From assembly GCF_032854445.1 (NCBI RefSeq), contig NC_088295.1:74428028-74492027 (forward strand): 64,000 nucleotides of DNA, read 5' to 3'. Below, piece by piece: positions 5,005 to 51,328 of this stretch. A program made the position numbers and the translations under genes. The notes under the pieces were generated by a model. It was not told the origin of the DNA and ran no database searches. It worked only from the letters and a program-made list of their open reading frames with translations. Position 1 is the first letter of the stretch; each line of letters starts with the position of its first letter. The stretch comes from Liolophura sinensis (Eukaryota; Mollusca; Polyplacophora; Chitonida; Chitonidae).

Positions 5005-5928
5005 CTATGTTGACAGACAGCAAGAACCAACGGCGCAGGACAATGACGATGCCACAGTGAAAGTCCCCAAAGTACAGGATGCCGTGCACATGCCCCCAGA
5101 ACTTATACAAGCTACAAAAGAGGACAACAAAACAGTTATTTATCGGCTGATGTTGGTGTATATGTAATTATTGTTATCGCTTTGGTAAAAGACAGGCTGT
5201 AATACATGAAGACACTCACAGAAACATATCTGAAGCTATTGCTGAGATACATGTAAATACATTCTATTTTCTAGTACTACTGAAAAATTGCAAGGATTTA
5301 CAGCGTTTGTTAATACACATCGATGCACACAGAATTCCATGAAATGTATTACATTCAGTTTAACATGACAACAAAATACGTAAAACGTCCGTGGTCACGT
5401 CGTTGGCAAGAATGAAAAACTTGCATAAGATGACAATATTGGCACGCAAAATGACAATATTGGCATGGCCCATGTTTGTGTACACGGAGGACGTCTTACC
5501 TCCAAACGCAGACTTAGATTTCAGCAGGGTTGGACATGTACTATAATTGCAATAACATTTCTTACCAAGTGATCGATGAAAACTCAAATAAAGCAGAAAA
5601 TTTTACAACTACCAATACATCTTACAGTGTGTCAGATTGGACAAATACTACGTGATCTAGTCCTAACGGAGTAGCTCTTCCCTTACTTTAGACGGAAAAG
5701 GTTCCCAATTATATAATGATGGCAATTCAACTTACTGGCCGTCACGACTGGTGCAGGAGTTGGAGCCGGGACGGGAGCTGGGACGGGAGCCGGGACCGGA
5801 GCTGGGGCGTTGTTATAATTACCACCTTGGTATCCGTAACCACCGCCTTTGTAACCACCATAACCTCCTCCAGCGGATACAAGCGCCACACACGTGGCCA
5901 GGATAAACGATATCAGCAGTCTGTCCAT
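5005..5928 (-). CDS. Gene A: secreted Gly/Tyr and Ala-Pro protein with C-terminal defensin-like Cys module
   Basis: Two exons, about 99 residues. Exon 1 (5928-5736) starts at MDRLLISFILATCVALVSA, a clear signal peptide. The ATG at 5928 was chosen because the upstream in-frame ATG lies at the TATA box. A Gly/Tyr stretch (GGYGGYKGGGYGYQGG) and an Ala-Pro-Val repeat follow. The exon ends at A|GTAAGT in phase 1. Exon 2 (5111-5005), after TTTTGTAG, also reads in phase 1 and encodes CISSGGMC, TASC, TLGTF, then SCAVGSCCLST and a stop. Cysteine spacing is C-x6-C-x3-C-x12-C-x4-CC, the closest in the window to beta-defensin and big-defensin spacing. All six mature cysteines lie in exon 2. The Gly/Tyr part resembles structural secreted proteins of molluscs. 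Function is inferred only: shell, mucus or defence. Genes B, C, D, E and G share the plan. Confidence 0.85.
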
Positions 5929-5996
5929 GGTGGAATGAGCAAGTTGACTGCCGGGAAAGATGGTCGAGTCAGTGAGAGACAAAGAGAGCGACGCCA

Positions 5997-6004
5997 TATT
6001 AATA
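5997..6004 (-). promoter_or_regulatory. TATA-like box of gene A
   Basis: TATTAATA about 70 bp upstream of the gene A ATG, matching the spacing in the sister genes. Confidence 0.55.
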
Positions 6005-6449
6005 CACGGAGGGATGGGTCATTCAGCCCCCGGGCTATTGGAAATCGTTATCATAGGACAGACGAACTTGCTAAGTGGCTCCTTAATGAGTATACATAAA
6101 GAGTGTATTGCTACATACAGGGCGCACCTGTAGAAAAGTCACCAAATCGATAAAACAATCCCAAAAGTACTTTAACAACTTAGTTAGTGCAAGATCGCTT
6201 ATTGGTGCTTGTCATAAGATGATATTTGTAGCGTTGGTGGCCTGTCCGAGCAATACAATTATTAAAAGAGGTGCCCATATAAATAAATGTTAGTATGACG
6301 AACGGTGATCTTGGTGATTAGACAGTTAATCTGAGATTTCCTCGTGGCATTTTGAAATCTGATCTTTGCTGCTGTTCGGGCATTTGCGCTCTCATCTCAT
6401 CTTCATAGCTGCTATAGTCACCACTCTTTTGCATTCTTGTTTTTATTGA

Positions 6450-6700
6450 TTTCACTCATTGTTATTTACCGCTATTCTCGAGTATTGTTCACTTCTTCGA
6501 TGGTGGTCAGTTTCAGGAGCGGAGGAAACCAGAATGCTAGGATTAAACCATCGAGCTTTGGCCAGATATTGGCGAACACTTCCACATGACACAGACACAT
6601 GAACAACACATGAGGGGGAAGAAAGTGGTTTTGAACTGATGTTAGGTCCCCAGAGGGAGCGAGAGCGGGAAGAGTGTACAGATTTCTTGTCCAATCTCAC
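6450..6700 (-). mobile_element. SINE-B-like, minus, diverged
   Basis: Shares the order of short blocks seen in other SINE-B copies: a TTATTTACCGCTATTCTCGA-like tail, GATGGTGGTCAGTTT, AACCATCGAG, then CACATGACACA. Confidence 0.5.
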
Positions 6701-6864
6701 CTTGTTTGTCCTATCGATTGTAAAGCAAGCACATTTAACCATTAGAAAACGACACACTCTCTAGTAAAATTTTAAAGCTATAAAATTATCTCTTAGTCAG
6801 TTATTTGTGACATATGGTCATATATGTTTTTAATATTAAAACCCCTACGTACAACTCCTTAGTG

Positions 6865-6992
6865 GCGCAGAACCTGTGGATGGTCGTGGGTTTCCCCGGG
6901 GTTCTGCTCGGTTTCCTCCCAACATAATGTTGGCCGCCGTCGTATAAGTGAAATATTCTTGAGTACGGCGTAAAACACCAATAAAATAAATA
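6865..6992 (+). mobile_element. SINE-A, plus, 5'-truncated
   Basis: Central domain (GGATGGTCGTGGGTTTCCCC) through the AATA tail. No head. Confidence 0.85.
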
Positions 6993-8394
6993 ACGCGGAA
7001 ATTATTTGAAACTAACTAATATTCACTCCTACCAGGCAGAATGTGTTCCTGGCACACATGTCTTTCATGTGGTACATAGTAATATTCTCCAGCTTTTGGT
7101 CCCGATGAAATAAGTCTATTGAAATATAGCATAAATGTTTCTAAGTCTGATCATGAATGTAAATTGCCATTCCTGTATAAAAATGATCAGTTTTAATTGA
7201 ACTACAGTTTATTAAATGTGCATAGCTGTCCTGGTCATTTTACTTTGAAAATAATGCTGTGAATAAAACGGAAAAACGACTGCTTGGATTTGACCCTTTT
7301 GTATACACGGTAGAGCAAATTAAGATCTGATTTTTAGCACGTCTAAATTTTACTAACACATTTTGCAGTATCTGTTTTCTGTATTTACAATGTCCAATAA
7401 CGTTTCACAATGGTGAACAATCGTTTAAAAATCACCTGGAAAGAAAGTGTGCTTGGCTCAAGGCTAAGACAAAGTAGAATCTGCACCAAATATCTTGCTG
7501 TTCAAAACATTTTCCATTTTTAAAGTTGTTAAAAGACGGAGAGACAGAGTAAAATGCGCCAACAAAAATAACCAAGGAAAAGCCGTGCCTCTATTGGGGT
7601 GACCATATTGTGAACTAATATGATTAGATATTTGATTCTTTAGGATAGGAGAAAGGAGAATCTCGCAATCTTTTACGCCATAGGCACAAAGACAGCGTGG
7701 TCAATACTATTTAATGATCTATTGGAGTTCATACAATATTACCTCCTGACACTGAAGACTACCGGACTAGTTTGTGAGTCCAGCCAAAGTGGGTTGGGCT
7801 CGTGCATTTATATTTCAACCGTATTTAATGCATACTGCATATTAAGTGAACATTTACGGGAAATAAGCGTAAAACACCACGAAACCGGTCAGCAAGAACT
7901 TTGAATATTCCAATTTTGTTTCCTTTCGGTTATGTTTGGTTTTGTCCATCGGCAAGCGTGGCTGACGCTGTTTAGATCATATTTTTAGTTATTTGTGCTT
8001 CCTGTTTCGCGCTCTCATTTGTCTTAGGGCACTGGCGATACATACGAGTTGTGCACGAATTTTATGTCGGCAATGTCACAATGGGGTCTTCTTTCAGCGG
8101 ATGTATAGTAAGGCGGGGAATCGACTCCAGTACATGGAACTGTGGACGTCTAGTGCCTAAGCTGACTATAGATGAGGCTGACATCTGCTCACACACTCAT
8201 AATGACGCTACACTTTTTAGTTGTTTCACTCATAACAGTATCACAAATGTAACTTAAATTATGAAACAACAGTCAAACAACTTAATGATAGACGTAAATT
8301 TAAGCCGTATAATACCATTCATTTGCATGTTAAATTACGCATTTCCATACATGTGCCTTAATTATCAATTCTAATTCATGGTAACACAGGCTTA
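6993..8394. other. Intergenic, no gene seen
   Basis: AT-rich. The small open frames at 7722 and 8051 lack signal peptides, splice sites and promoters. Confidence 0.5.
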
Positions 8395-17544: not shown

Positions 17545-18530
17545 TATAAACCATACACTCGCCATTTCCGTGGTGGAATACCGAATGCTCTGCTGCCGTT
17601 AGGGAACGTAAACGTCTCAAGAATCGAGCACGTCGTACACGACATTACGATGATATTATATTGTACAAGAGGGCGAAGGCTGTAGCTGAACGAACAATCA
17701 AACGAGCTCAGAAAGATCATTGGCGGCAATTTTGTAATAATTTATCCGAGACTACACCAATCAAAAACGTTTGGGTTCAAATTAAATCCATGAATGGCAA
17801 GGGGAAATCTAAAGCTATTCCCACCATTGTTCATAACGATTCTGAATATGTCACCAATTCAGATAAATGCAACATTTTAGCTGACAGCTTTTCCTATGTC
17901 TCCAGCTCGAGGAATTATTGCCCAGAATTTATTTCTCATAGGAAAGAAATAGAGAAAGCTTTATTTGGAATAAGTCCACAGCGTTTGTGTATGAAATACT
18001 GTATATCTGTATTATATAGTGCTACCAAGGTGTATCTGTGGCGTTTGAATGGGTGCCGGCCCACATTGGTGTTGACGGAAATGAGATGGCCGACAAACTG
18101 GCCAAAAAGGCCCTCGATCTACCCAATATATCCCTCACCACCCCCTTGTCCGTACAAGAAGCTATTAGTTATGTCAAACCGAAATTTATACCAGTATGGC
18201 AAAATGAATGGGATAACTCTGTTACAGGGAGATTCTTTTATTCTCACAACCTTCAAATCTCTGTAAGCTGCAATCTCTCAACTGTCGCTGTGACGAAATA
18301 CTCGTATTTAGACTCTTGTCTGGTCACATTAAAACAAACAGCTATTTGCATAAATTCAATCTCAGTGACACGAGTCTTTGTGAGGAATGTTTTGTAGAAG
18401 ATACTGTTACGCATGTTCTTTTTCGTTGTAGACGTCATATTGACGCCATGCGCGTATTTTACGCAGAATTAACTCGTATTGGTGTTAGGAACCCGTCAGA
18501 AAACACGGTTTTATAACCGGTGAGAAATCA
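17545..18530 (+). mobile_element. LINE fragment with RNase H end, internally deleted
   Basis: The left part (about 17545-17980) encodes the endonuclease-RT linker of a non-LTR retrotransposon: PWWNTECSAAVRERKRLK, then ERTIKRAQKDHWRQF and SSSRNYCPEF. The right part (about 18030-18250), in another frame, encodes an RNase H C-terminus (WVPAHIGVDGNEMADKLAKK). Then comes a Cys/His tail (LCEECF..HVLFRC) ending at 18516. The whole reverse transcriptase domain is missing between them. RNase H plus a Cys/His tail fits the I/Nimb/Jockey-like group (family knowledge). It is dead: frames are broken and nearly all of ORF2 is absent. Confidence 0.88.
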
Positions 18531-20746: not shown

Positions 20747-23700
20747 CTACGGACCCAAGGCGCAGCAGACACCAGTTTCACAAGAATAGTTGGGTGTTGG
20801 TGTGCCTTTGAGATCAGTACATGCGGAAGCGGACTCCAAGCAGAAGCGTCCCGCAAACCTAAGGCACTCTAGAAAAAGGAAAAAAATGCATCAAGCACAT
20901 TGTCAAGCTGGTTAATACATTGGCACAACCGTCCAATATAGACTGTTGATTGATTGGTGTCATGTAAATAGCACGTTGTGCGTGATAATGTCCAAGGCAA
21001 CTCATCTTTCTCGGGGTCATGTACACAATTGCACATGCGCGATGACATCAATTCGTGTGCATCGTAGTTAAAGGATCATAATTCAGTGTATATTAACGGA
21101 GAGCTACAGAGTGAAAGCCAAAGACACTGGGCGGTTCCAGTCCAATCAAAAAAACAAGGCTATAAGGAAAATATGCTTTTTTTAAGGTGGAGAAGAGGAT
21201 GTCTTATCTGGAGCTTAAACCTTAACAGTACATGGCAGCTGTTATATTAGTCTCAACACAAAACATACCTTTATTCAGAACAGGCGATTTTATTACCAGC
21301 CAAATTTAGTTAACTTTCACTGTAGCTCTTCAGAATAATGTGATGTTCTCATGTCAACTGATTGCTTCGTCTCCTTTTGAAAAGCCTGTATTTCATTTTT
21401 GTGCTGATCTGGAATATTACATGTAGCATTGTCTGGTCGAAAAGCCATAACAGTTTCCTTTTTGTAACATTTCCCCCTCAATGGTATGATGTGGCGTTAA
21501 ACCGTTATCATTCATTCATCCATTCTCCCCAAGTAAGGACCCTTACCATACAACTTGTTTATCCTCCCTTACCTGGATCTGGAAGAACAGGTGGTCCGGA
21601 GTTGGATGTCGAGTCGGATTCAGATCCAGATCCAGATCCGGAGTCAGATCCTGAGCTAGAACCTGAGCTGCTGCTGCCTCGTCTGTCTGAAATCGACAAC
21701 GCGTACATAACAATTGATATCGTCTGGTAAACTTTTATTTTGCTTGTCTTTGTAGTTTCGCCGGCCCCGATAGCTCAGGTGGTAGAGCGTTCTCTTCGGG
21801 AACGGTAGATCCAGCGTCAATGCTGGATCGACCTTAAAACAGGAAGTTGTAACTTCCTCAACATGGTGTTCATCGTTAAGGGGATAGTGCAACGACTGGT
21901 TGACACGTATCAATATAATATATCTGACGAGGAGGCTTACCTGCCCTCGGTGAGTCGTCTCAGTGAAGCAGTACTAGATAAGAGAGCGGTGGTAATCCGC
22001 CCTGCAGGAAAGAGGCACATGACACATACATGCACTCTAAGAACTCATTTGTCGTCACAAAAATTGTTAAGTACGACGTTAAACCCAAAGCACTCACTCA
22101 CTCACACACTCTTTGTAGTTATATATTTGTATTTTTGCCGTTTTCACAAGGAATCATCTTCGCTATGATATGCCTGCCAGGTTGAGCTATTTAACTAATA
22201 CTCTTTTATATGCCTAATCTGAGTAAGCACTAGAGACGTTGGTGTCCATCTTATGACATCGCTGTCGAGGATCTTTACTTACTGAGACAGCAAGCATTTA
22301 ATTCCGCTTGTTGACTTGGTGCAAGAGTGTCTGTTTACTAGAATAATAGCAACATCAAATCCTGAGGGAGCCTAATTTAGATGTCATTGTTGTAATCAAT
22401 CTTTTATTCATTTGAGGAAGGATGGCTCGTTTGCCGCAACAACAATATCTTAATATGGTCACTGAACGCAAATTGTTTCACCCGAGGTGGTATTACGTGG
22501 GAAAAAATACGTTTAGATTCATGGTATACATAAAATACATTTTGAAACCATTATTACTTAGGTGAGGATTTCGCAATCACTTTTACAAACATTATCGTTA
22601 CATCACTATTAACTTCTTCTACGAGAAAATCCGCTTTAATCCTTATTGCATGATTATTGGATCCCAAAGGTAAACAATGAAAATCGAACGCCTATATTCT
22701 GTGCAACAACCAATAACTTAGACTTGATATCTTCTTAGATAATTCCTCAAAAATATGATATATCGTCCAGAGCAAATTCTCCTTCAGTCATAATCACATT
22801 TCAAACCAACTAAGTCAACGAAACATTTTAATAACTACCTCTGCTTCTAACACTGGACCGTGTTCTTCGGCTGTCGCTTCCACTTCCACTGCCGCTACTA
22901 CTTTCACTGTCGGCTTCAGCAGCTGCTGTATCAGCATTTGTGGCGTCTCCTGTGGGAGCTGCTGTATCGTCTTCAGCTGCGGCGTCTTCTTCGTCGCTCT
23001 CGCTGCTACTGCTGCTGCTACTGCTGCTGCTGCTAGAACTGCTTCGTTTTCTTCGGCTGTCACTTCCACTTTCACTATCGCTACCACTTTCACTGCCAGT
23101 CGCAGCAGCTGCTGTATCAGCATTTGTGGCGTCCCCTGTGGGAGCTGCTGTATCGTCTTCAGCTGCGGCGTCTTCTTCGTCGCTCTCGCTGCTACTGCTG
23201 CTGCTGGAACTGCTTCGTTTTCTTCGGCTGTCGCTATCACTTCCACTGTCGCTACCACTTTCACTGCCAGTCGCAGCAGCCGCTGTATCAGCATTTGTGG
23301 CGTCTCCTGTGGGAGCTGCTGTATCGTCTTCAGCTGCGGCGTCTTCTTCGTCGCTCTCGCTGCTACTGCTGCTGCTACTGCTGCTGCTGCTAGAACTGCT
23401 TCGTTTTCTTCGGCTGTCGCTATCACTTCCACTGTCGCTACCACTTTCACTGCCAGTCGCAGCAGCTGCTGTATCAGCATTTGTGGCGTCCCCTGTGGGA
23501 GCTGCTGTATCGTCTTCAGCTGCGGCGTCTTCTTCGTCGCTCTCGCTGCTACTGCTGCTGCTGCTAGAACTGCTTCGTTTTCTTCGGCTGTCGCTATCAC
23601 TTCCACTGTCGCTACCACTTTCACTGCCAGTCGCAGCAGCTGCTGTATCAGCATTTGTGGCGTCCCCTGTGGTATCTACTGTATCGTCTTCAGCTGCGGC

Positions 23701-25470
23701 GTCTTCTTCGTCGCTCTCGCTGCTACTGCTGCTGCTACTGCTGCTGCTGCTAGAACTGCTTCGTTTTCTTCGGCTGTCACTTCCACTTTCACTATCGCTA
23801 CCACTTTCACTGCCAGTCGCAGCAGCTGCTGTATCAGCATTTGTGGCGTCCCCTGTGGGAGCTGCTGTATCGTCTTCAGCTGCGGCGTCTTCTTCGTCGC
23901 TCTCGCTGCTACTGCTGCTGCTGCTAGAACTGCTTCGTTTTCTTCGGCTGTCGCTATCACTTCCACTGTCGCTACCACTTTCACTGCCAGTCGCAGCAGC
24001 CGCTGTATCAGCATTTGTGGCGTCTCCTGTGGGAGCTGCTGTATCGTCTTCAGCTGCGGCGTCTTCTTCGTCGCTCTCGCTGCTACTGCTGCTGCTACTG
24101 CTGCTGCTGCTAGAACTGCTTCGTTTTCTTCGGCTGTCGCTATCACTTCCACTGTCGCTACCACTTTCACTGCCAGTCGCAGCAGCTGCTGTATCAGCAT
24201 TTGTGGCGTCCCCTGTGGGAGCTGCTGTATCGTCTTCAGCTGCGGCGTCTTCTTCGTCGCTCTCGCTGCTACTGCTGCTGCTGCTAGAACTGCTTCGTTT
24301 TCTTCGGCTGTCGCTATCACTTCCACTGTCGCTACCACTTTCACTGCCAGTCGCAGCAGCTGCTGTATCAGCATTTGTGGCGTCCCCTGTGGTATCTACT
24401 GTATCGTCTTCAGCTGCGGCGTCTTCTTCGTCGCTCTCGCTGCTACTGCTGCTGCTACTGCTGCTGCTGCTAGAACTGCTTCGTTTTCTTCGGCTGTCAC
24501 TTCCACTTCCACTGTCGCTACCACTTTCACTGCCAGTCGCAGCAGCTGCTGTATCAGCATTTGTGGCGTCCCCTGTGGTATCTACTATATCGTCTTCAGC
24601 TGCGGCGTCTTCTTCGTCGCTCTCGCTGCTACTGCTGCTGCTGCTGCTAGAACTGCTTCGTTTTCTTCGGCTGTCGCTATCACTTCCACTGTCGCTATCA
24701 CTTTCACTGCCAGTCGCAGCAGCTGCTGTATCAGCATTTGTGGCGTCCCCTGTGGTATCTGCTGTATCGCCTTCAGCTGCGGCGTCTTCTTCGTCGCTCT
24801 CGCTGCTACTGCTGCTGCTGCTGCTGCTAGAACTGCTTCGTTTTCTTCGGCTGTCGCTATCACTTCCACTGTCGCTATCACTTTCACTGCCAGTCGCAGC
24901 AGCTACTGTATCAGCATTTGTGGCGTCCCCTGTGGTATCTGCTGTATCGTCTTCAGCTGCGGCGTCTTCTTCGTCGCTCTCGCTGCTACTGCTGCTGCTG
25001 CTGCTGCTAGAACTGCTTCGTTTTCTTCGGCTGTCGCTATCACTTCCACTGTCGCTACCACTTTCACTGCCAGTCGCAGCAGCTACTGTATCAGCATTTG
25101 TGGCGTCCCCTGTGGCATCTACTGTATCGTCTGCGGCGTCTTCTTCGTCGCTCTCACTGCTGCTGCTACTGCTGGAACTGCTACGTTTCCTTCGGCTGTC
25201 ACTCCCGCTATCGCTATCACTTTCACTTTCGCTACCACTTTCACTGTCGGCGTCAGCGGCTGCTGTATTAGCATTTGTATTAGCCGCAGTGGCGTCTCCT
25301 GTGGTATCTACTGCATTGTTTGGAGATGCAGCGTCTTCATCGCTCTCGTCGGTACTGCTACTGCTGCTGCTGCTGCTAGAGCTGCTTCGTTTATTTATCC
25401 ATCTGGTTTCGATGCTGGCAAAAAAAATGCAAAGAAGTAACGCCGGAAGTAAAAGTCGAGTAGCATTCAT
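20747..25470 (-). CDS. Gene G: large secreted Ser/Asp repeat protein with furin-like sites and C-terminal Cys module
   Basis: Predicted three exons, 955 residues. Exon 1 (25470-22839) encodes the signal peptide MNATRLLLPALLLCIFFASI. Thirteen units follow, each with an RRKR site, a run of 9-14 serines, ESDEEDAAAEDD, TGDATNAD and a Ser/Gly/Asp stretch. RRKR followed by serine fits the furin consensus R-x-K/R-R, so the chain could be cut into acidic peptides. It ends RRTRSSVRSR, at G|GTAGTT in phase 1. Exon 2 (21686-21573), after GATTTCAG, gives RRGSSSSGSSSGSDSGSGSG and a Pro tail, phase 1 to phase 1. Exon 3 (20868-20747), after TTTTTCTAG, encodes CLRFAGRFC, six residues, C, twelve residues, then CETGVCCALGP and a stop: C-x7-C-x6-C-x12-C-x4-CC. 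The exon 1 donor is weak. Without that splice the frame ends three residues later. The matching phase and RR-Ser composition support the join. Such acidic Ser/Asp proteins bind calcium and occur in mollusc shell matrices (family knowledge); the role here is inferred. Confidence 0.82.
21758..22109 (+). mobile_element. SINE-C, plus, in gene G intron 1
   Basis: tRNA-like head GGCCCCGATAGCTCAGGTGG, then TAGAGCG, a body, the 3' part TAAGTACGACGTTAAACCCA and a (CACT)n tail. Flanked by an 11-bp direct repeat TCTTTGTAGTT (21747-21757 and 22110-22120). Confidence 0.92.
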
Positions 25471-26305: not shown

Positions 26306-28545
26306 CTAAATCAATGATAAATCTTTCGTGCGTAAAGGTACGTTTAGTCCCTCGTCAGACTTGGCCTCGGTCTCTGTCAGTGTGTACTTCTTCGCTACGT
26401 CATCACATCCACAGTCAATGATCTTCACACGGTGTTTGGGCCTGGCACTATCGTCTGTCTTTACGTCACCAATAGCACGGACGGTATCCTGCAGAACAGA
26501 CAAAAAGCATTATTGACTTTATTTATTTGATCTGTGTTCAAAGCCGTACGTTTACTGCGACCCAAAAATATTTCAGTGAATACAAAAGTGAATACAAAAA
26601 GCATTCACTTTTTATTCAAATGCAATGTTGTAAAGCAATGCCTTGTGGAAATTGTGTGATATATTGTGTCCACATTGATGTGCATATGTTTCACTGATGA
26701 AAATTTCACTGAATTTGTAGCCAGTTGTTCAAAGTAACAAATACAATCCTATAAACAGTGTGCCCTGCAACATTGTAAGTATTTTATAAAGTTTTATGTT
26801 TCATATGTCGTCATTCACCTCTTATCTAACGCTTTAAACCACCACTGAAAAAATATGCCAGGTATCATTCATTCTCTACCAAGACGTTAAGGGACAAATT
26901 GCGCTTTGGCTACTGCTGGTTGCTTTAAGTGTGTTATTTTCTTGTATTATATCTGAATGCAGCCAAGACGTTACCAAGGGAATTTATATGTCTATTTCTA
27001 GCTAATGAGGTGATCTTACCATTCCTTTCACGACCTTGCCGAAGACGACATGTTTGTTGTCCAACCACCTTGCTTTGGTCAACATGACGAAGAACTGGGA
27101 TCCATTTGTATCTGTACCGTGGTTAGCCATGGACACGTAACCGGCAGCCTTGTGACTCAGGATGAAGTTTTCGTCAACGAATTTGGAGCCGTAGATGCTT
27201 TTACCTGTTGATTGAAAAGAAGCACAAAGTTACGCAGAGCTCGTACTCAATTATTTCTGCAGAAATCTCTTTGAAATTAATATCCCAGAAATTGAAAACA
27301 ACATTAACATTCATAAATATATAGTAGCGTCGTCCTGTGTTAAATGTGTTTGACAACACAGCATTTTGAATAATTCCAAACCCGTGACGTCTAATAAATT
27401 ACAATTGTTTTTTACCTAATTCTGTTTAAGCGATGGTGCTATAGGGCTGGTAAGTTGCTTCTATTTAAGCATTTAAACGAACAGTTAGAATAAACAGTTA
27501 ATGGAGGTAATTTAACAGTCCGGATTTTACGGCACTTCTTAGTTGTAAGTCTTATTTAGATACATATACCACTTTACCTTAAAATATAAAAAAGTAATTT
27601 TCCAATGTTACAATAAATCTAGATCATAATCTTAATTTTGAATGCTTTTCAATCTTATCACCCACCTCCTGTTCCATCTCCTACAGTAATGTCCCCTCCT
27701 TGAATGACGAAATCGGACACGACCCGGTGGAAGTTAGTGTTCTTGTAAGTAAGTTTCTCCTTTCTCTGCAAAAAAGGAAGATACATCTTCGTAAGAAAGG
27801 ATGCAATAGTCAGTGAAAATGGCAGTGTGCATACATGCTATTTTATTTCAAAGAACTTACGCTTAGTACACAATTGATAGGGCGTTTAAAGTGTTGGTAA
27901 ATATAAACTGAATGGGGCCATGAGAATACGTACACTACATGTTGCTAATCTAGAATTGTTTTTTTTTGTATTAATGTATGTCCAATCTAAGCGTGCAAAC
28001 TCATACATTCTCATTGCAGTTCTGAGTTTATTTATTTATTTATTTATTTGCTTTTCCTATCTATCTTAATGGAGTTTTATAGCGTACCCAAGAACACATG
28101 TATTTCACTAATACGACGGCGACCACCATTAGGGTAGGAGGAAACCTGGCAGAGCCCGCTAGAAACCCATGACGATATTCAATTTTAATAATTCTCTCTG
28201 TCTAATTGTCATATTTATCATGCTTCTGGTATTGCAGCATACTAGGTAGCTTTTTCATTTAACTTTACGTAGTCATTTCTTTAATTTTTAACATTTTAAT
28301 TAATTTCATCTTACCCCGCTTTCCATTTTTCTTTCAAATCCGTTAGTAATTGAAGCAAAGTTCATGACAGTCATTGGTGTGGTTTCGCCGAAGAGACCAA
28401 TCACAAAGCGACCTCGGTAGTCCTCGCCTGGCCCGTCATAGTCGCGGATTTCAATATCAAACCATGCCTCTTTGGTAACTGTGAGGTTGTCACAGTAACC
28501 AAGGGAGAGAATAGAAGCAAAGACAGCTAATAGGAAAAACGCCAT
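26306..28545 (-). CDS. Secreted cyclophilin-type peptidyl-prolyl cis-trans isomerase
   Basis: Four coding exons, 232 residues: 28545-28315, 27765-27666, 27204-27020, 26488-26306, all with GT-AG borders (phases 0, 1, 0). It catalyses cis-trans isomerisation of X-Pro peptide bonds. The signal peptide [18 protein letters not shown] sends it to the secretory route. The cyclophilin core is intact: FHRV with the catalytic Arg, [31 protein letters not shown] and [13 protein letters not shown] with the Trp that marks cyclosporin-sensitive forms. The usual Met two residues before the motif Gln is Val here. The C-terminus runs about 35 residues past CGC and ends KDLSLI, with no KDEL-type retention signal, so export rather than ER residence is likely. 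A 5' noncoding exon (about 29297-29249) is spliced to 28556. Secreted cyclophilins have been reported from limpet shell matrix (recalled, not checked). The Pro-rich neighbours would be natural substrates (inference). Confidence 0.96.
28025..28172 (-). mobile_element. SINE-A, minus, diverged, in a cyclophilin intron
   Basis: (TTTA)n tail, a diverged TAATGGAGTTTTATAGCGTA, then AATACGACGGCGACCACCAT and AGAGCCCG. Confidence 0.75.
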
Positions 28546-29029
28546 ACCGGCTGAATCTGTAAACAAAACAAAACATTTTTTTCGAAATACTTGTAAATAT
28601 GTGTTAAATTGAAAATGTTTGAATAAAAAAAAATTAGTCACGTCTGAAAGCCGGTAAAATTTGTCAATTATGGACATTCAAATGGCCTAAACAGAAAGGC
28701 ATAGGAATGAAATGGCTACAGGTAAACAAACAAAACATCCATGCAATTAGACAGTAGAATGGATTTCTGTCGTGTACTACGTAAGGCGAGGAACATATCC
28801 AGAAAAAATTGGCACATCCAAATTGCTGAAACATACATCAGGTAAATCCACATTTCTTCCCAGGCGATTCAAAGTATTTACTTGAAAACTTGATAGAATA
28901 TGCACTTCTAAAGAACAAACAACTTTAATATAGTCGAATTCAAATAAATAAAGTTGGTCTTTGCAGTCTAAAGGTTAATATTTCATAACTGTATTTCACA
29001 ATTATATTATTAAAATATTAACCATAAGT

Positions 29030-35552: not shown

Positions 35553-38380
35553 ATGAGGAGTTTACTGCTTCTGGCATTGCTGGCCACAATTGGCAGTTTG
35601 GAGGCCAAGAGATATTTCTATAGATCGCGTTACAGCTGGAAGCCTAAACACCCTGCGCCCCCACCACCACCAGCTGTTATGTACAAACCAGCACCAGCCC
35701 CGGCGCCGACACCATGTCCAACACCAGCTCCAACACCGGCACCTACGCCAGCACCGACACCGGCACCGACACCAGCTCCAACACCGGCACCGACACCGGC
35801 GCCGACACCAGCGCCGACTACAACGGCATCTGCAACGACAACGGCTCCGGCGCCGACGACGACGGCACAGCAAAGTAAGAACTGGTGCATGAGTAAGCCT
35901 ACGGTCTTAAGGGGCGTACATTTATGTGCTGTTATATTCAGTTGCCGTGGGATATTTATATTTTTGTTTTATATTCGGGGTGGGAGTGGAGGGATCCGTG
36001 TCTTAGAGCAGACGGGTTATTGCGTTTGGAAATGTGTAAGTTTTCAACAGCTTTCTCATAAGAAAACCACCAATACACCTGTATGTTGTCTCGCTGACGA
36101 TGGTCATAGGCTCTAAATATGCATCTGATATTTTCCCATTTCTGTGAATAAGGTAGAACTTAAAACGTTTCAAATTAATTGTATGTACATGGTTGGAAGA
36201 TGGTAACCTTCTACGGTTAAGTTGTCTGCTACTAGTAAATCGCTAAGCTGTCTCATGCCAAACCCTCTCGGCCCAAACCGCAATCATCGCGCTGTTCAGG
36301 TTATACAAATACATCTTTTGTGGTTCATTTTAGCGATTAATCGGCAGTTTCTATATAACAAATGTCACAGTCAGTGAAAAATTCATTAGGGATTCCGAAG
36401 GTTTATATGGGAATGAGAATCAGCACCGAACAATGCTTAAAATTAACTAATTTTTATGATGTAATTTTTTCTGTAATTTTTTTTGAAGTGAAGAATTTAA
36501 AGTTTGCTCCTTTGTCTTTCTCGCATACAAGGGGTGGCTTTTATCCTGTTTTCTCTTATAAAATACAGTAAAATTATTGAAACGCCATGCTCAAGCAGAG
36601 ACCTGTGCTTTCTGTGACGTTCGCGATTACTAGGTCAGCACTGTTCTCATTCTAGAAGTCATCACCACAAAACTGAAGCAGTCGAACCGACAGTCGAATG
36701 CCTACATCAGCCTCAGTGGTGCTTAGATTTATTTCCATTTGTTTCAGAGTCTAATGAATCTAGTTGTGCAAAGATCCTGTTGTAATTTTGTAAATATTTA
36801 ACAGTGGTCCAAATCACCAGCACAACACCTCCGGAAGCTACGACCTGAACCAGGACTACCCGGCCGTGCATCTGCAGGCCACTTAAACTGCAAATGATAT
36901 AGCAGGCTTATTGTATCAACAGTTCAAGCAGTGGAAGAACTATCCTTCCAGTATGTCCAATTTCCGAGAATGCTATTTATCACTTGGTCCTTCATCGCCG
37001 AAGTCCACAACTGCTTAGACTATTATCGACGTTGGAGACCTAGAGGAAACGTGACGTCACCTTGCTTGATAATGGTGGCGCTGAAAATGTGTCAAGACGA
37101 AATTTCACTAAACTTTTTCACTAAACCTCAAAAAAAATCTTAAAAACTTTGTAATGGTAGTCTTTCAGCGCACAAAAAAAACATAAGTCAGGCGCTGTCT
37201 TTCACTTTAACGGATTTTACAATGGTCTCGTTTATGACTAAGGTATTAATCAAGCTATCGATGAGTTAATCAAGGATTGACACCAGGAGATTTACCAGGC
37301 ATGCGGCTAGGAACTATAGTGGGGCATTCATCCGCTTAACCACTGATACATACACTGGTGAAGCAGTGTGCTAAATGAAGTAAATCATAACCAAAAGCTC
37401 GAAATTTTTTTTAAAATTATCTGTGCATACAATATTTTCTAGTCCCCAGTTTCTAGTCATATTCCTACTAATTTGTTTTGCCTTACAAGTGCCCCATTTT
37501 TATCAGCTACTGGAAACTGGATTTAAGAATGAATTATTAAAGAATGTTGTGCGGTTGATAAATTTTGAAAATTAAACTCTTAAGGCACATAAAATAATTG
37601 TAACATATCTGTACACCTTAATGAGCTTACGTGAAGGTCTTTCTTTGGGAAGATTTTCTGTATTCAGATAATTCAAAGTTGTTCTTTGTTCAATCAAGGC
37701 TAACCTTCCGGGTATTACAGGTTGTTCTGAAAATTGATCGGGCTATTATGTAGTCTAAACGTCCTTCGTCTTTTACTACTGATATACATATGTGAACGTC
37801 GGACTTGGCGCTTAGAACTAATTAACTTCTTTGTGCATTATGAAATACCGTGGATCTATTTTTCATTCAAATGGATATAAGCATTAAATGATATTCGGTC
37901 TGAAACTCATCTGTGAAAACGTGCATTGTTTGCATTCATATCCTGCAATATTAGAAACTAGAAAAACTCTTTCTAAAAAGTAATTAATCTTTAATTATAC
38001 ATACATGTATTCGACCTGGATTTTTTTTAATCTATTCATTTCATTCATTGTTTGCTAAGTCTTTGCTTGTTTTTCTGTGTTAACTTGCAGGGTGTATAGC
38101 AGATGCCGGCGGCATTTGTGCCGAGTCGTGTAACATCGGAACTTTTACGGAAGAAGATTCTTCCCTGTCTTGTGAAGGGAACCAGGGCACGGTGTGCTGT
38201 CTGGAGCCTGGCACTCGACGAGGGCTGATACTCGGCAGACGAAACCGTCAACTTAATAGAGCAAACAACCGAGGACGGAACAGTCGACGGAATGGTAGAC
38301 GGAACGGAAGACGAAATGGAAGGCGGAACGGCAGACGGAATTCCAGGCGTAACAGTGGATTTAGTCAGAGAGCTGGATAG
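35553..38380 (+). CDS. Gene B: secreted Ala-Pro-Thr protein with Cys module and basic RRN tail
   Basis: Two exons, 203 residues. Exon 1 (35553-35874) encodes the signal peptide [18 protein letters not shown] and the motif [10 protein letters not shown] shared with genes C and D. A proline run and about ten APTP repeats (threonine also as TTT) follow. It ends CAGCAAA|GTAAGA in phase 1. Exon 2 (38091-38380), after TAACTTGCAG, is also phase 1 and encodes [27 protein letters not shown], then [10 protein letters not shown]-x7-C-x3-C-x13-C-x7-CC. It adds a strongly basic tail of RRNG/RRNS repeats (about 38270-38370). One extra cysteine in the repeat body (TPCPTP) makes the total odd, so linkage to another chain is possible. 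The Thr/Pro body is a likely O-glycosylation substrate. Family: sister of A, C, D, E and G. Function not proven. Confidence 0.9.
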
Positions 38381-43612: not shown

Positions 43613-46268
43613 ATGTACAGTTTTGTGTGCATGCTCATAAGCTCCAGCTTAATAACAGTAGCATCTGGGGGAATATATCCGTATGTCTCACGTTATAACT
43701 GGAAACCTAGTTTTATTCCACCGCCTGCACCATACAATAACGATGCTGTGTCACCCCCATGTTCAGCCCAAGATGCCACACCGTGCCCTGATTCCTCCAT
43801 CACAACGACACCCGCGACGGAACCACCTTCGTCAACGACACCCGATTCTTCAGTTTCCGCTGAAGCATCAACAACAACCGTAACGGCGTCGTCCACGGCT
43901 GCACCAACCAGCACAGTACTGGCACCATCGACAGCTGCACCTTCCACCAGCACACCATCATTACCAGGTTAGTTCTGCAATTACTTGTTTTTTGTAGAGA
44001 ATCTGTGATTTCAGTACTTCACTAGTGAGAAACAATGCGACAAAAAACACTTTAACAGTATTATCGTTAATCTGGATTACACTTTCTGAATATAGCACAG
44101 ATTCTAAAGCTGAAAAAAGTGGCTGAGACCACTACGGGTTTCGAACCAGCGATCTCAGAGTCAGAGACCAAATCGACCACTGGAGCAACAGGCCGTCTGA
44201 TATATTCAACTAAGGGAGCGGTGTCATTTGTCATTTGTGATCATCAGAGGGGTAATGCATGTTCGTGGTAAAGTCTACCTGTCAACTGCCTTCTATTTTG
44301 TTGGAAGGCCTGTTGGTCGAGTGGTCTAGACATTTGACATGTATTGCTGGTGATTTGGTGCCTGACTCTGAGTTCGCTGGTTCAAAACCCGCAGTGGTCC
44401 CAACCAATTTTGGGCACTAGAATCTGTGCTATATTCAGAAAGTGTAATCCCTATTAACGATAACACTGTTACTTATTCCACTTTCTAAATGACATCTTCT
44501 GCCGTGCGTGGGAAGGTCTGCCAACAACCTGCGGATGGTTGTGCCCGGTTTCCTCCTACCATAAGGTTGGCCGCCGTCCTATGAGTGAAATATTCTTGAG
44601 TACGGCGTAAAACACCAATCAAATAAATAAATAAATTCTAAATGACATCTATACCTGTCTGAAAAAAAAAACACTTTGTACCACCATGATCTACAGTTCC
44701 CACTTTACCTGGTCATGGGGAAAAGCACTCTCCCAAAGCTAGTAACACAGGATCATGTTGTACAAAGTATTTTTTGTCGCGTTATTTCTCGCTACTTTAG
44801 TACTTTAACTCCACTGAATCTACGTATCGTGCCAAACTTATATACATTTATCACGAGGGAATATCATTGCCAATCATTGCCTGGAGCACAGTAATGGTCA
44901 AGTACCACAGTTATGTATAGAGTATTACTAGGTCGTGTCGTTGTGCTTACAAGCTATCTGTCGTTAAATTCACAACATTCATATTTAGCTGTTGGCCCAG
45001 TTTACTCCGCCGCAGGTTATCAGTATATAGTTTGAATGTCTGGTATATTCGGTGTGACTTTCAGTTCCTCTTTGTACTGCTATTAGGGTCTGTATAAGCG
45101 TACATGTTTATTACGTCGAAATGATGCTTTTATGATTTGTGTCATTGGTGTTTTGTGCCGTACTCACGATGATACTTTTATGAACGGTCGCAATCAAAGC
45201 TCAAGTGAGATACCTATATATTCGCATTTGACCTGAAAATAATTCACCGCCTATAGGCCTATGAGTACGAGGACTATCCGTGTAATCACTGAATACCAGC
45301 TTTACTTACCATTTACACTGATAATTTTTGCATATTCCTTGCGGAACTGGTTTTGAAGGATTTGGTACCGGATTTTGCGATTACCTACTTGGAAGGCCCT
45401 TCATGCTTTATGTTGTTGCATTTCACTGTCGGATTTGACACTTATTTCATACGCATATTGCCATTGCTTTGCCAAGAGCCTTGCGCAGTATTCATATCGT
45501 TTAATTATATAATTTATTATAACCCATTTTATAAATTTCCTTGACTAAAATAGCTTTTAAAAACAAACAAAAGTAATTTTGTGGAATAATTATTTTCGGC
45601 AATAAGGTACGAATGGTTAATGCGTAACGATAGAAGACAAACCCTTTAACCATACGGATGTATTTGGTAATTCTTTGTCTAATAACCTACACTGATTCAC
45701 TGAATATGGGTAACGAATGAATGTAATTACAGCGATTCGGTGTAAGCGGAAGTTCTCTATCAGTGCATCAGTAATATACCTTACATTTATTTAATGGTTT
45801 GATTGGAGTTGAGCATTGTACTCAGTATTTCGCTTATAGAACGGCGGTCAGCAACCGGGAAAAACCCGGTGCAAACCGTCGAGCAGAACCCGGTGCAAAC
45901 CCTCGAATATCCGCAGGTTGCTGACAGACATTCCCACTTAAGATAATTCGTTACAAGTTTGCCTACAAACGTTATCGCAAAAGCAGGAATAAATAATAGA
46001 CTACACAGATGGGGCCCGTATTGTTTTAGGCAGGGAAAGTTCTTATTTATACTGATGGATGACAGCAATTTATCAACCTTAAACTTTCCATTGATTGAGT
46101 ACAGTATCACATTGTGTCCGTATATGTTTGCCTGCAGATTGCATCTCAGACGGAGGGGGTATCTGCACAGCGTCATGTAACATCGGTACGTTCACGGAGC
46201 AGGATTCCAGCTACAGCTGCGAGGGAAATGGGCTGGGGTCTGTGTGCTGTCTGGAACCCGTGGGTTAA
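43613..46268 (+). CDS. Gene C: secreted Ser/Thr-rich protein with C-terminal defensin-like Cys module
   Basis: Two exons, 161 residues. Exon 1 (43613-43967) encodes the signal peptide MYSFVCMLISSSLITVASG and PYVSRYNWKPSFIPPPAP, clearly related to the gene B and D motif. A Ser/Thr/Pro/Ala-rich, mucin-like body carries two further cysteines (PPCSAQDATPCPD). The exon ends CCAG|GTTAGT in phase 1. Exon 2 (46138-46268), after TTTGCCTGCAG, gives [27 protein letters not shown], then GSVCCLEPVG and a stop: C-x7-C-x3-C-x13-C-x8-CC. The 2.2-kb intron holds an inverted SINE-D pair and two SINE-A copies. Gene D lies 1.3 kb downstream on the same strand and has the closest module, so tandem duplication is likely. 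Confidence 0.9.
44045..44480. mobile_element. Inverted pair of SINE-D copies in the gene C intron
   Basis: The left arm is SINE-D in minus orientation, the right arm in plus, with heads facing inwards across a spacer of about 100 bp. The outer ends match closely: the left arm has GATTACACTTTCTGAATATA, and the right arm has the same read in reverse. The plus head is GGCCTGTTGGTCGAGTGGTC, with box B GGTTCAAAACCC. Confidence 0.85.
44498..44635 (+). mobile_element. SINE-A, plus, 5'-truncated
   Basis: Begins at TCTGCCGTGCGTGGGAAGGT. Flanked by the 15-bp direct repeat TTCTAAATGACATCT (44483-44497 and 44636-44650). Confidence 0.93.
45785..45945 (-). mobile_element. SINE-A-like, minus, diverged
   Basis: TTTATTTAATGGTTTGATTG tail, GAACGGCGGTCAGCAACCGG, then an internal duplication of the AACCCGGTGCAAACC block and ATCCGCAGGTTGCTGACAGA. 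Confidence 0.7.
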
Positions 46269-47464: not shown

Positions 47465-47471
47465 TATAAAA
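47465..47471 (+). promoter_or_regulatory. TATA box of gene D
   Basis: TATAAAA 56 bp upstream of the ATG at 47521. Confidence 0.75.
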
Positions 47472-47520
47472 CCGAGGACAAGCCTATGTTGAAACTGGTA
47501 CCAAATGTACTGTGTCGACG

Positions 47521-48355
47521 ATGGTTGTTAAGGTAAAACTTGCTATAACGGTGTTTGGTTTGTGCTCGTGGGTAGTATTATGGTGTGTCTGGCAGGCTAT
47601 GGAAACCGGTACTCCCGATCTCGGTACAACTGGAAACCAAAGAGGCCCCCGATGCAGAGCCCACCCCAGAACAGACCCCCGATGCAAAGACCCCCGCAGC
47701 ATAGCCCTCCACCGCCTGGTTTCCAGCCCCAGTTATGTAAGGCTAAGTTTTTATACGACAACTTTGATGCACAAAAGGTTGCCGAGTGTTTTGCCATATA
47801 TGTACTATTGTATTCTGAGATTATTCTGTGATGTTCCTATTCGATCCGTTGATCTTGAATATTAAGCCTTGGCATGAAAACCTGTCTTTTTCCAAAGTTC
47901 ATATGTTAATCAAATATGATCAGTCCCATGTTGTTAATTTTTTAATAAAGTATTCACTGTCAGTTTCCATGTATAAAAAAGGCTATTTATACAAAGCTGT
48001 AGATGTTATCTGCATTATATGATCTGACTGTTTTAATATCATCCCATGACCCACACAGGGCACTTGCTTGTATTGCTGCCCACCTCAACAAACCTCGATT
48101 ATACTACAATGTTTGTTGCATCCAAGAGTATTAACAGTACATGTGTATTGCCAAAGAATGATATCGCAGTTTTCGCAAACATTTATTTAATTCGTCCTCA
48201 TTTGAAAACAAGATAATGCATCCTCTTTCAGCTTGTATCCGCGATGCTGGGGAATCTGCGCGGCATCCTGTACCATCGGAATATTTACCATTCAGGACAC
48301 GAGTTACAGCTGTGCCGGTGATGGAGTTGGAAGCGTTTGTTGTTTGGCGTCGTGA
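47521..48355 (+). CDS. Gene D: Pro-rich member of the Cys-module family, frame-broken in this assembly
   Basis: The promoter, exon order and phase-1 splice match genes B and C. The ATG at 47521 starts a hydrophobic leader (MVVKVKLAITVFGLCSWVVL), but the mature part (YGNRYSRSRYNWKPKRPP and PPMQ repeats) lies in another frame. The join needs one base more. Exon 1 ends CAGTTAT|GTAAGG at 47736 in phase 1. Exon 2 (48232-48355), after CCTCTTTCAG, starts in frame as CIRDAG, then needs one more G in a GGGG run to give GICAASC, TIGIFTIQDTSYSC and GSVCCLAS before a stop at 48355: C-x7-C-x3-C-x13-C-x8-CC. The Cys module is otherwise intact. Both breaks are single missing bases, the second in a homopolymer, so assembly error competes with recent decay into a pseudogene. 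Read literally, neither reading would make a secreted Cys-module protein. Confidence 0.7.
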
Positions 48356-48626: not shown

Positions 48627-48632
48627 AATAAA
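48627..48632 (+). terminator. Poly(A) signal of gene D
   Basis: AATAAA about 270 bp after the stop. Confidence 0.5.
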
Positions 48633-48708
48633 GACAAGGAGATCACGTTTTCTATCAGGAAGTGTCTTTATTATACTGTATACATTATGGTTAATATATA
48701 TATATAAG

Positions 48709-48923
48709 GGGTCTCCGTGGCTCAGTCGGTTAGCGCCCTAGCGCAGCGTAATGAACCAGGAGCCTCTCCAATGCGGTCGTTGTGAGTTCAAGTCCAGTTC
48801 ATGCTTGCCCTCCTTTCCGCCGTAAGTGGGAAGGTCTGACAGGCAACCTGCGGATGGTCGTGGGTTTCCACCCACCATAATCGTATAAGTGAAATATTCA
48901 TGAGTACGGCGTAAAACACTAAT

Positions 48924-48929
<6 letters not shown>
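48709..48929 (+). mobile_element. SINE-A, plus, full-length type
   Basis: Intact tRNA-like head (GGTCTCCGTGGCTCAGTCGG) through CACTAATCAAAT. A gap of about 25 bp lies in the central domain, where the Pro-like GGGCTCTGCCCGG part is missing. Confidence 0.93.

Positions 48930-49008
<79 letters not shown>
48930..49008. repeat. (AT)n microsatellite, about 80 bp
   Basis: Pure AT dinucleotides directly joined to the SINE-A tail, so it probably grew from the tail. Confidence 0.95.
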
Positions 49009-49010
<2 letters not shown>

Positions 49011-49040
49011 CTATTTATATAGTATAACATATTGTCAGCT

Positions 49041-49173
49041 GGCAGTACGTGAGAAGGTCTCCCAGCAGCCAGATGGTCATGGGTTTTCGCCAACCATAAA
49101 TTCTGGCCGCCGTCGTATAAGTGAAATATGCTTGAGTACGGCGTAAAACACCAATCAAATAAACAAAAATAAA
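49041..49173 (+). mobile_element. SINE-A, plus, 5'-truncated
   Basis: Starts in GGCAGTACGTGAGAAGGTCT. Flanked by ATATTGTCAGCT (49029-49040) and ATATCGTCAGCT (49174-49185), a target duplication with one change. Confidence 0.9.
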
Positions 49174-49570
49174 ATATCGTCAGCTACATCTGATTTTTAT
49201 ATGTCAGAGGGGTGTGTCGCTGATTACTGTGTGATATACATGTACCGGCCCTAACACAATGAAAGGTCTTTTCTTCAAGGAAATGGAATAGTGCAATTAG
49301 GCTGTGTTCAGTTGATTTTGCTTTTCTTGTCATTTGTCCTCTCAGGTTCAGATGGGTGTGTTCCTACCAGGTCGTTTTGACATAAACAACTTATTATTTA
49401 CAATGTGTGCTGCTCGTAGTACATGGAGAATTACAATTAATTTCAAGAGAACTGGTGCAGCACAACAATGTGTGGTAAAAATTGCGTCTTATGTTGTATA
49501 TAGGTGCCTCTTCACAACCCGTGCATAATGGACATCGTCATCTTTCAGATAGTCGGTATGTTTGTGTACA

Positions 49571-51328
49571 TCAGTTGCGCCCCCGTAGTCGCACTCGCCG
49601 ACGATGGGATCTACGAGCTGACTCCACACAACACACTGTACCGGGGTTACTCTCGCACGAGAACGACGTGTCCTCTACTCTGAAGGTGCCGATGTTACAG
49701 GTTACCGCACATATACCGTTACCATCTGATATACACCCTGGGGAACAAAAATGACAATAGCATTACTATAGGTCTCACAGGCATTTAGATGATTCAAACT
49801 CATACTGGCACTGTACGTAATGATTAATTATGGGACTATGGCTGAACAGTGTATCAACACATCACTACAAAAATATTTCAGGTTATATATTATAGGTTCA
49901 TATGTCCGTGAACACAAACATATGGTATCTCTCCAGCGGCCACTTTCACAAAATTTCTTAAATCATAATTCTCGCAACTTTCTTTGATGTTGTTTAGATC
50001 ATTGCACCATAAGGTAACATGATTTACGAGAAAAGTCACAAAAATATTACTTACAAATTTTTATGAAAGTGCGCGGGCCCTTGAGTCTATGTCTCAAACC
50101 GCCCTAACACAAACTAAATTTATACGTTTTGAAAGCAACAAATGCCACCCCCTCCCACCCCCTACCCCCTACCTTGTTTTAGATTTCTGTCCTTTTTTCA
50201 TCACGAAGATGTTAATTGTAGCAGTTATTCACTGTCTGCTAGCAAAAAGAAAGATAACGGCACTATTATTTTAACCTGCCGTCAAGAAAAGTTGATGACA
50301 GAAGAAATAATCTTGACTTTCTTATTGGTGCTAAATCCAAATGAGGAACTTGTGATTGGCAATGAAATGCGTCGCCTAGGGTAAAGTTTCACATCTTAAA
50401 AAACGTTTTTAGATTATATAATGCTGTTAAAAAAGGATTTTTGCTCACTTTGTTGTATAGTAGTCGTGGGTTCAGGTGTTGTTGTTGTAGTGGTCGTAGT
50501 GGTCGTTGTTGTAGCCTCTGTAGTTGTGGTTGTTGTCGTCGTTGTTGTTTCTTCTGTAGTGGTAGCTTCTTCTGTGGTTGTCATTTCTTCTGTGGTTGTC
50601 ATTTCTTCTGTTGTTGTTTCTTCTTCCGTTGTTGTCATTTCTTCGCTCTCCATCATTTCGGTTGTCATTTCTTCCGTAGTTGTCATTTCTTCAGTAGTCG
50701 TCATTTCTTCCGTTGTTGTAGTTTCTTCTGTTGTAGTCTCTTCTTCTGTAGTAGTCACTTCTTCTGTAGTAGTCATTTCTTCCGTTGTAGTTATTTCCTC
50801 TGTTGTGGTCATTTCTTCTGTCATTTGTTCTATTGTCATTTGTTTTATAACTATCACACAATCCGCCTCTTCTGTTGTTGTCATTTCTTCACTTTCCATC
50901 ATTTCTGTTGTTTGTTCTTCTGTTGTCGTTTCTTCTTCAGTGGTCGTCATTTCTTCTGTTGTCGTTACTTCTTCAGTGGTCGTCATTTCTTCTGTTGTCG
51001 TCGCTTCTTCAGTGGTCGTCATTTCTTCTGTTGTCGTCGCTTCTTCTGTGGTCGTCATTTCTTCAGTTGTAGTCATTTCCTCTGTTGTAGTAACCTTCTC
51101 AGTTGTCGTCATTTCTTCAGTGGTTGTCATTTCTTCTGTTGTCGTCATTTCTTCCGTCCTTGTCATTTCTTCAGTTGTTGTCATTTCTTCCGTTGTCGTA
51201 TCCTCTGCATTTTCAACGTAAGAGACTGAAATGGTATTTTCATTATATATTGACCCGGATATCGCCACATGCAGCACAGACATGAGCAGCATAAAAACCA
51301 GTGTCACTCTCATCATGGCTGTTTTCAT
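49571..51328 (-). CDS. Gene E: secreted Thr-Glu-Met repeat protein with Cys module and basic tail
   Basis: Two exons, about 348 residues. Exon 1 (51328-50449): the start is taken at 51328 or the Met pair at 51316/51313, because the longer frame's first ATG sits at the TATA box. Signal peptide core MMRVTLVFMLLMSVLHVAIS. The body is a hexapeptide array of TTTEEM and TTTEEA/V/E, interrupted once by a segment with one cysteine (EADCVIVIKQM), then a poly-Thr run. The exon ends ACAACAA|GTGAGC in phase 1. Exon 2 (49737-49571), after TTTGTTCCCCAG, gives CISDGNGIC, AVTC, NIGTFRVEDTSFSC, then GTVCCVES: C-x7-C-x3-C-x13-C-x7-CC. It closes with the basic tail RRSHRRRVRLRGRN. An acidic, probably O-glycosylated body with a basic tail suggests charge-driven assembly (inference). 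It faces gene D tail to tail. Confidence 0.87.

What the first reader, a model, noticed from the sequence alone, without database searches (positions are those of the whole stretch)
5005..51328. A six-gene family pairing one conserved Cys-module last exon with six unrelated low-complexity bodies
Seen: genes A, B, C, D, E and G (both strands) each have a TATA box, a signal peptide, a low-complexity exon, a phase-1 intron and a last exon encoding a six-cysteine module ending in CC. Five share C-x6/7-C-x3-C-x12/13-C-x4..8-CC with an invariant G(G/N)x-C and (I/L)G-(T/I)F core. G is more diverged. The bodies (Gly-Tyr, Ala-Pro-Thr, Ser-Thr, Pro, Thr-Glu, Ser-Asp) do not align with each other. Known: this spacing and terminal CC are those of beta-defensins and big defensins. 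Inferred: the module is a fixed targeting, cross-linking or antimicrobial head carried by rapidly replaced polymer-like bodies, a possibly undescribed secreted protein family in mollusc mantle or mucus.
Basis: partly seen in the sequence, partly recalled or inferred. Interest (0 to 1): 0.92.

Follow-up and report, generated by a model that had tools for sequence, protein, structure and literature searches.

The report
Chiton secreted proteins sharing cysteine module
A stretch of chiton chromosome beside the Hox genes carries a tandem cluster of about ten secreted-protein genes that join one conserved six-cysteine module, spaced like a beta-defensin, to very different repetitive bodies; it looks like a new lineage-specific family whose function is untested.

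Summary
The window lies on scaffold 1 of the chiton Liolophura sinensis. A profile of six window modules finds ten modules in 264 kb, all within about 86.5 kb, with a score gap from 37.3 to 9.8 bits. In all ten the splice acceptor lies two bases before the first Cys codon; nine join a leader exon in an open, phase-1 frame and D is frame-broken. Bodies are not all unrelated: A'/A, B/C/D and H/J share motifs. Modules are neutral to acidic and conserved.

Spacing and intron phase resemble big defensins, but a canonical big defensin sits elsewhere in this genome, the cluster genes lack its N-terminal domain, and similarity beyond cysteines is weak. Structure prediction was inconclusive. Two genome-wide module searches found only this cluster plus one weak hit. 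Best reading: a tandem family of secreted epithelial matrix or mucus proteins with a defensin-like disulfide anchor; host defence is the main functional rival. No expression data were available.

The parts
5736..5928 (-). gene A exon 1: leader, Gly-Tyr-Lys body, Ala-Pro repeats; phase-1 donor GTAAGT
5005..5111 (-). gene A last exon: module (first Cys codon at 5109), stop
22839..25470 (-). gene G exon 1: leader and Ser/Asp/Glu repeats with 13 RRKR sites (donor is weak, GTAGTT)
21573..21686 (-). gene G exon 2: Ser-Gly-Asp linker
20747..20868 (-). gene G last exon: diverged module (C-x7-C-x6-C-x12-C-x4-CC)
35553..35874 (+). gene B exon 1: leader, SRYSWKP motif, Pro-Ala-Thr body
38091..38380 (+). 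gene B last exon: module then Arg-Asn-rich tail (net +20)
43613..43967 (+). gene C exon 1: leader, SRYNWKP motif, Ser/Thr/Pro body
46138..46268 (+). gene C last exon: module
47521..47736 (+). gene D exon 1: leader-like ATG out of frame with the SRYNWKP/Pro-Arg body
48232..48355 (+). gene D last exon: module with a frame break between Cys1 and Cys2 near a GGGG run
50449..51328 (-). gene E exon 1: leader, Thr-Glu repeat body
49571..49737 (-). gene E last exon: module then Arg-rich tail (net +7)
62052..62179 (-). gene H last exon: module; its first exon lies beyond the window (67028-66731 in window coordinates)

Best explanation
This is a tandemly duplicated chiton gene family of about ten members. 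Each gene has an exon with a hydrophobic leader and a low-complexity body, and a last exon with a six-cysteine module (anatomy read here; leader judged by hydropathy only; one copy, D, is frame-broken). I infer that the proteins are secreted by epithelia into mucus, cuticle or another extracellular matrix. The Pro/Thr/Ser-, Gly/Tyr- or acidic bodies would give the polymer-like bulk, perhaps glycosylated or phosphorylated, and the disulfide-closed module would be the fixed element that anchors or packs the molecules. The module has beta-defensin-type spacing; descent from a defensin exon is plausible but not shown.
For: Ten modules, each with an acceptor two bases before Cys1; nine of ten models open. 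Module protein sequence is kept: dN/dS 0.12-0.47 in the 14 of 36 pairs where dS could be computed, dS saturated in the other 22, D left out. In 4 of 5 module-exon DNA matches the similarity starts at the acceptor; in B-C it reaches about 65 bases into the intron. Bodies are low-complexity, Pro+Thr+Ser 25-58% (leaders cut off by eye). Modules carry net charge 0 to -7, which speaks against attack on membranes by the module itself. [quoted passage not shown] a Gly/Tyr region of an oyster matrix protein binds chitin (PMC4498902, passages).
Against: No transcript, protein or tissue evidence was available; [quoted passage not shown] B and E carry strongly basic tails, which a host-defence reading would expect. 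Secretion, modification and disulfides are inferred. Two AlphaFold2 runs gave mean pLDDT 68.1 and 67.0, so even a stable fold is not shown.
Confidence: 0.5

Rival explanations
1. The genes are host-defence effectors: non-canonical big/beta-defensins in which the N-terminal assembly domain was replaced by low-complexity bodies, working as two-domain antimicrobials or nets at the body surface.
For: Phase-1 intron at the 5' edge of the Cys region, as described for big and beta-defensins (PMC7203481, passages). Spacing close to C-X6-C-X3-C-X13(14)-C-X4-CC (PMC2958110, passages); J is x7-x3-x13-x4. Gly two before Cys2 and an aromatic five after Cys3 in 9 of 10 modules, as in three solved big defensins (sequences; read by eye). 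J aligns ungapped from Cys2 to Cys6 with the chiton big defensin, E 0.007 for that one comparison. B and E have Arg-rich tails. Big defensins range from anionic to cationic.
Against: Profile comparison 1.1% probability. Against the chiton's own big defensin 111 to 519 of 1000 Cys-fixed shuffles score as well as the module, while three known big defensins score 0 of 1000. That chiton big defensin has Val, not an aromatic, five after Cys3. No hydrophobic N-terminal domain. Modules are not cationic. The genome keeps a canonical big defensin elsewhere.
Confidence: 0.25
2. On ancestry (this can hold together with the matrix reading): the module is unrelated to defensins, a lineage-specific disulfide module whose spacing converged.
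For: Weak or absent similarity beyond cysteines; no relevant Pfam match and no PDB sequence match; phase-1 introns flank many extracellular modules (recalled), so the phase is not diagnostic.
Against: Cys-fixed shuffles against three oyster/horseshoe-crab big defensins: 8 of 9 modules above their shuffle mean, J at 5 of 1000; against the chiton gene 8 of 9 are also slightly above the mean, none rare. A big-defensin profile itself reached only one other PDB defensin, at E 2.1, and Pfam Defensin_big misses its own cut-off on Cg-BigDef1, so such misses mean little.
Confidence: 0.4
3. Reproductive coat proteins (egg hull or sperm surface), comparable in use to the sperm-coat beta-defensin DEFB126.
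For: DEFB126, a beta-defensin whose tail has 17 predicted O-glycosylation sites, coats mammalian sperm (PMC4735291, passages); mucin-like bodies would fit.
Against: Nothing in the locus points to gonad; in DEFB126 the glycosylated stretch follows the module, here it precedes it.
Confidence: 0.08

Closest known systems
Big defensins (e.g. Cg-BigDef1; canonical copy at C1:48.155 Mb of this genome)
   Same: Last exon with a six-Cys domain ending in CC; phase-1 intron near its 5' edge; similar spacing; Gly two before Cys2
   Different: No hydrophobic N-terminal domain, low-complexity bodies instead; acceptor two bases before Cys1, against five codons plus two bases in the chiton big defensin (by eye); modules neutral to acidic; little similarity beyond Cys
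Mollusc repetitive low-complexity matrix proteins (silk-like proteins, KRMP)
   Same: Leader plus Gly/Tyr- or Pro-rich repeats in a matrix-protein setting
   Different: KRMP pairs a Lys-rich basic domain with a Gly/Tyr domain (PMC4498902, passages); no six-Cys CC module of this kind was seen in the passages read
Penaeidins and hyastatins of crustaceans
   Same: Pro- or Gly-rich N-terminal part plus six-Cys C-terminal domain
   Different: Cys array C-x2-3-C-x9-10-CC-x5-CC (PMC4954822, passages), not met here
DEFB126 sperm-coat beta-defensin
   Same: Defensin module joined to a Ser/Thr-bearing stretch with predicted O-glycosylation
   Different: Order reversed; vertebrate; no sequence test made

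Membership tests
Big defensin | Hydrophobic N-terminal beta1-alpha1-alpha2-beta2 domain | tested here: not met
   Bodies are low-complexity; a genome search with whole Cg-BigDef1 gave 3 matches, none in the cluster
Big defensin | Spacing C-X6-C-X3-C-X13(14)-C-X4-CC | tested here: inconclusive
   None of 9 intact modules is exact; J (7,3,13,4) and A (6,3,12,4) differ in one loop by one residue (pattern)
Big defensin | Phase-1 intron at 5' end of the Cys-rich region | tested here: met
   10 of 10 acceptors two bases before Cys1, donors phase 1 in the models; definition. Not diagnostic alone
Big defensin | Sequence similarity of the Cys domain beyond cysteines | tested here: inconclusive
   Weak excess, not rare, hhalign 1.1%, J E 0.007
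Beta-defensin fold | C1-C5, C2-C4, C3-C6 pairing on a beta-defensin fold | tested here: inconclusive
Antimicrobial peptide | Kills or binds microbes | not testable with these tools
   Needs a bench assay
Penaeidin/hyastatin | Cys array C-x2-3-C-x9-10-CC-x5-CC | tested here: not met
   Spacings; definition
RTMP1 (chiton radular teeth matrix protein 1) | Gly/Ser-rich, Trp/Phe-rich and His-rich regions | tested here: not met
   Bodies and modules, compared by eye with the description (no sequence comparison made)
Repetitive low-complexity secreted matrix protein | Leader plus low-complexity repeats | tested here: met
   (leader by hydropathy only)
Repetitive low-complexity secreted matrix protein | Present in a mineralised or cuticular matrix | not testable with these tools
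   Needs proteomics

The most novel reading that the evidence does not exclude
A defensin exon was captured in the chiton lineage and, by tandem duplication beside the Hox cluster, became the shared anchor of a whole family of extracellular polymers, with module-body pairs perhaps exchanged between copies. The hint for exchange is slight: at DNA level the A' module is closest to D and B to E, while D's and B's leaders share a motif with C; protein identities instead put A' and B nearest C. It would be a natural case of the exon-shuffling route proposed for defensin origins, but leading from immunity to material.
Probability: 0.17. Interest if true: 0.75.

Novelty: new variant of a known kind. 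Interest (0 to 1): 0.5.

Why it matters
If the exons are expressed as modelled, chitons have a compact, easily located family in which a constant module can be followed while the attached polymer changes. The Hox1 anchor (homeobox about 88 kb from gene A') lets the locus be sought in other chiton genomes even where bodies cannot be aligned, so it can test whether bodies turn over by repeat expansion or by exon exchange. It also bears on whether defensin exons are re-used outside immunity.

Tried and rejected
Rejected: RTMP1 (described regions differ); penaeidin-type array; chance occurrence; gene F (59576-56661) as a member: the profile found no module between it and E's own, and the one donor-like site I looked at, overlapping its stop codon, is phase 2 by eye. 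Led nowhere: Rfam at gathering scores and tRNA scans (none); Pfam on six and three further chiton sequences (nothing relevant); PDB sequence searches with modules (none); protein database searches with the C and A' modules (no candidate sharing three words); two structure predictions and their structural look-ups; module tree with no supported inner branch, D left out. The weak C9 hit (E 5.2): in the locus cut out there, the two frames of 40 or more residues with at least 5 Cys do not show the module. Genome-wide searches with the J and G modules and with the chiton big-defensin exon did not complete, so members that only they could reach may be missed; the C module missed A, G and K, the K module missed A', D, E, G and J.

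Limits: first exons of A', H, J and K were picked with the help of hydropathy and low complexity, so their low complexity is partly by choice. Six modules built the profile and match by construction; A', D, J and K did not.
Full report
WHERE IT IS. The window is G000:C1:74428028-74492027 in an assembly of 609,464,459 bases and 632 contigs; C1 is 96,433,062 bases. The published chiton assembly has 632 scaffolds, 609,495,693 bases and a scaffold_1 of 96,433,062 bases (PMC11068029, passages). Its correction states that the species is Liolophura sinensis, not L. japonica (PMC12441733, whole text). Total lengths differ by 31,234 bases, which I did not explain. Homeobox exons of Hox1/labial and Hox2 type (named from recall of such sequences) lie about 90 and 138 kb to the left, so the cluster sits outside the Hox1 end of the Hox cluster.

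THE MODULES. A Cys-spacing pattern, written after seeing the modules, hits five times in the window and never in 60 random Markov-1 sequences of the same length. A profile built from six window modules was run over 264 kb (window plus 100 kb each side). Ten matches score 78.1 to 37.3 bits; the next is 9.8. Four of the ten (A', D, J, K) were not in the profile. A further 40 kb on the left gave nothing above 8.4 bits. Genome-wide, the C module gave 8 matches, 7 in the cluster and one at E 5.2 elsewhere; the K module gave 5, all in the cluster. The family looks like a single locus within the limits of those two queries; each missed known members, and queries with J and G did not complete.

GENE MODELS. 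All ten last exons begin two bases before the Cys1 codon after an AG (D's acceptor). Nine models are open from ATG to stop with phase-1 entry into the module. G has an extra middle exon, and three ends of it were tried before one read open. D leaves frame inside its module and in its leader. TATAWA boxes: of the ten starts eight were scanned; found for B, C, D, E and G but not A in 160 bases, and for A' and J; K has one by eye; H was not reported on.

CONSTRAINT. Nine intact modules were compared pairwise (D left out). Of 36 pairs, 22 have saturated synonymous change; the other 14 have dS 1.0-3.4 and dN/dS 0.12-0.47. With 33-39 codons these values are rough, but they agree that protein sequence is kept. 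At DNA level five pairs of module exons match (A'-D, B-E, B-C, A'-C, C-D); four matches start at the acceptor, and B-C reaches about 65 bases into the intron. Most other rows between these genes are repeats in introns and flanks or Pro-Ala-Thr arrays (my reading of the 35 rows). The duplications are thus old. Module identities run from 31% to 79%, D compared in part. The tree resolves nothing.

BODIES. They range from 45 residues (A) to 855 (G exon 1) (leaders cut by eye). Motifs found in two or three of the genes and nowhere else in 264 kb are GGYKGGG (A', A), SRY(S/N)WKP (B, C, D), NILRPGxG (H, J) and TTTxQQ (B, E). Pro-Ala-Thr arrays of B and K match. So the bodies are diverged relatives in at least three groups, with E, G and K less clearly placed. 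B and E carry Arg-rich tails after the module, +20 and +7; module cores carry 0 to -7.

IS IT A DEFENSIN? For: the phase-1 intron at the edge of the Cys region is described as shared by big and beta-defensins (PMC7203481, passages); spacing is close to the big-defensin pattern (PMC2958110, passages); 9 of 10 modules have Gly two before Cys2 and an aromatic five after Cys3, as do three solved big-defensin sequences (G lacks both; read by eye). Cys-fixed shuffles against those three give 8 of 9 modules above the null mean, J at 5 of 1000, and the sum at 1 of 1000, though the modules are not independent. J aligns ungapped from Cys2 to Cys6 with the chiton big defensin, E 0.007 for that single comparison. 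Against: hhalign probability 1.1%, E 0.048; no relevant Pfam and no PDB match; against the chiton's own big defensin 111 to 519 of 1000 shuffles do as well as each module (8 of 9 slightly above the mean, none rare), while oyster and horseshoe-crab big defensins score 0 of 1000; that chiton gene has Val where the modules have the aromatic. The canonical gene, found with Cg-BigDef1 at C1:48155967 (E 5.5e-6, 44% identity), has an upstream exon resembling the hydrophobic domain and, by my reading, a phase-1 junction five codons plus two bases before Cys1. Structure prediction could not settle it: mean pLDDT 68.1 and 67.0, with only a weak match to a sea anemone peptide for one model and nothing to compare for the other. 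I therefore call the module beta-defensin-like in spacing and gene anatomy, not a big defensin.

FUNCTION. Read from sequence: anatomy, clustering, conservation of the module. Inferred: secretion, disulfides, modification of bodies, matrix or mucus use. I favour a secreted epithelial matrix role because of the polymer-like bodies, non-cationic modules and long-kept module sequence. The basic tails of B and E, and the defensin-like anatomy, keep a host-defence role open.

PRINT. Searches of the held library listed no description of such a family; the library holds open-licence papers only, I saw listings and passages rather than whole papers (except the correction), and supplementary files could not be searched.

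Noticed in passing
window coordinates -90744 to -90295 (+) and -138426 (+): Homeobox exons of Hox1/labial and Hox2 type left of the window, so the cluster flanks the Hox1 end of the Hox cluster.
   Followed up: partly
L041 (C1:48153600-48156600): A canonical big defensin gene with a hydrophobic-domain exon and a C-x6-C-x3-C-x13-C-x4-CC last exon.
   Followed up: partly
11881-11216 (-): A leader exon followed by RRSSGSSESFD repeats of about 157 bases resembling gene G's middle exon, with stops between copies (by eye) and no module: perhaps a decayed G relative.
   Followed up: partly
59576-56661 (-): A 971-residue leader-bearing protein with acidic 32-residue repeats, without a module.
   Followed up: partly
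25470-22839 (-): Gene G exon 1 carries 13 RRKR sites between Ser/acidic blocks, so the protein may be cut by furin-like proteases into many pieces.
   Followed up: no
window coordinates -29894 to -29265 (-): A leader-bearing precursor with many GFGDKR repeats, like a neuropeptide precursor.
   Followed up: no
28306-28677 (-): A leader followed by a cyclophilin-like first exon (by eye).
   Followed up: no
17550-18397 (+); window coordinates 74018-75144 (-): Pieces that look like a non-LTR retroelement and a Tc1/mariner-type transposase (by eye), plus repeated SINE-like stretches in introns of the cluster genes.
   Followed up: no
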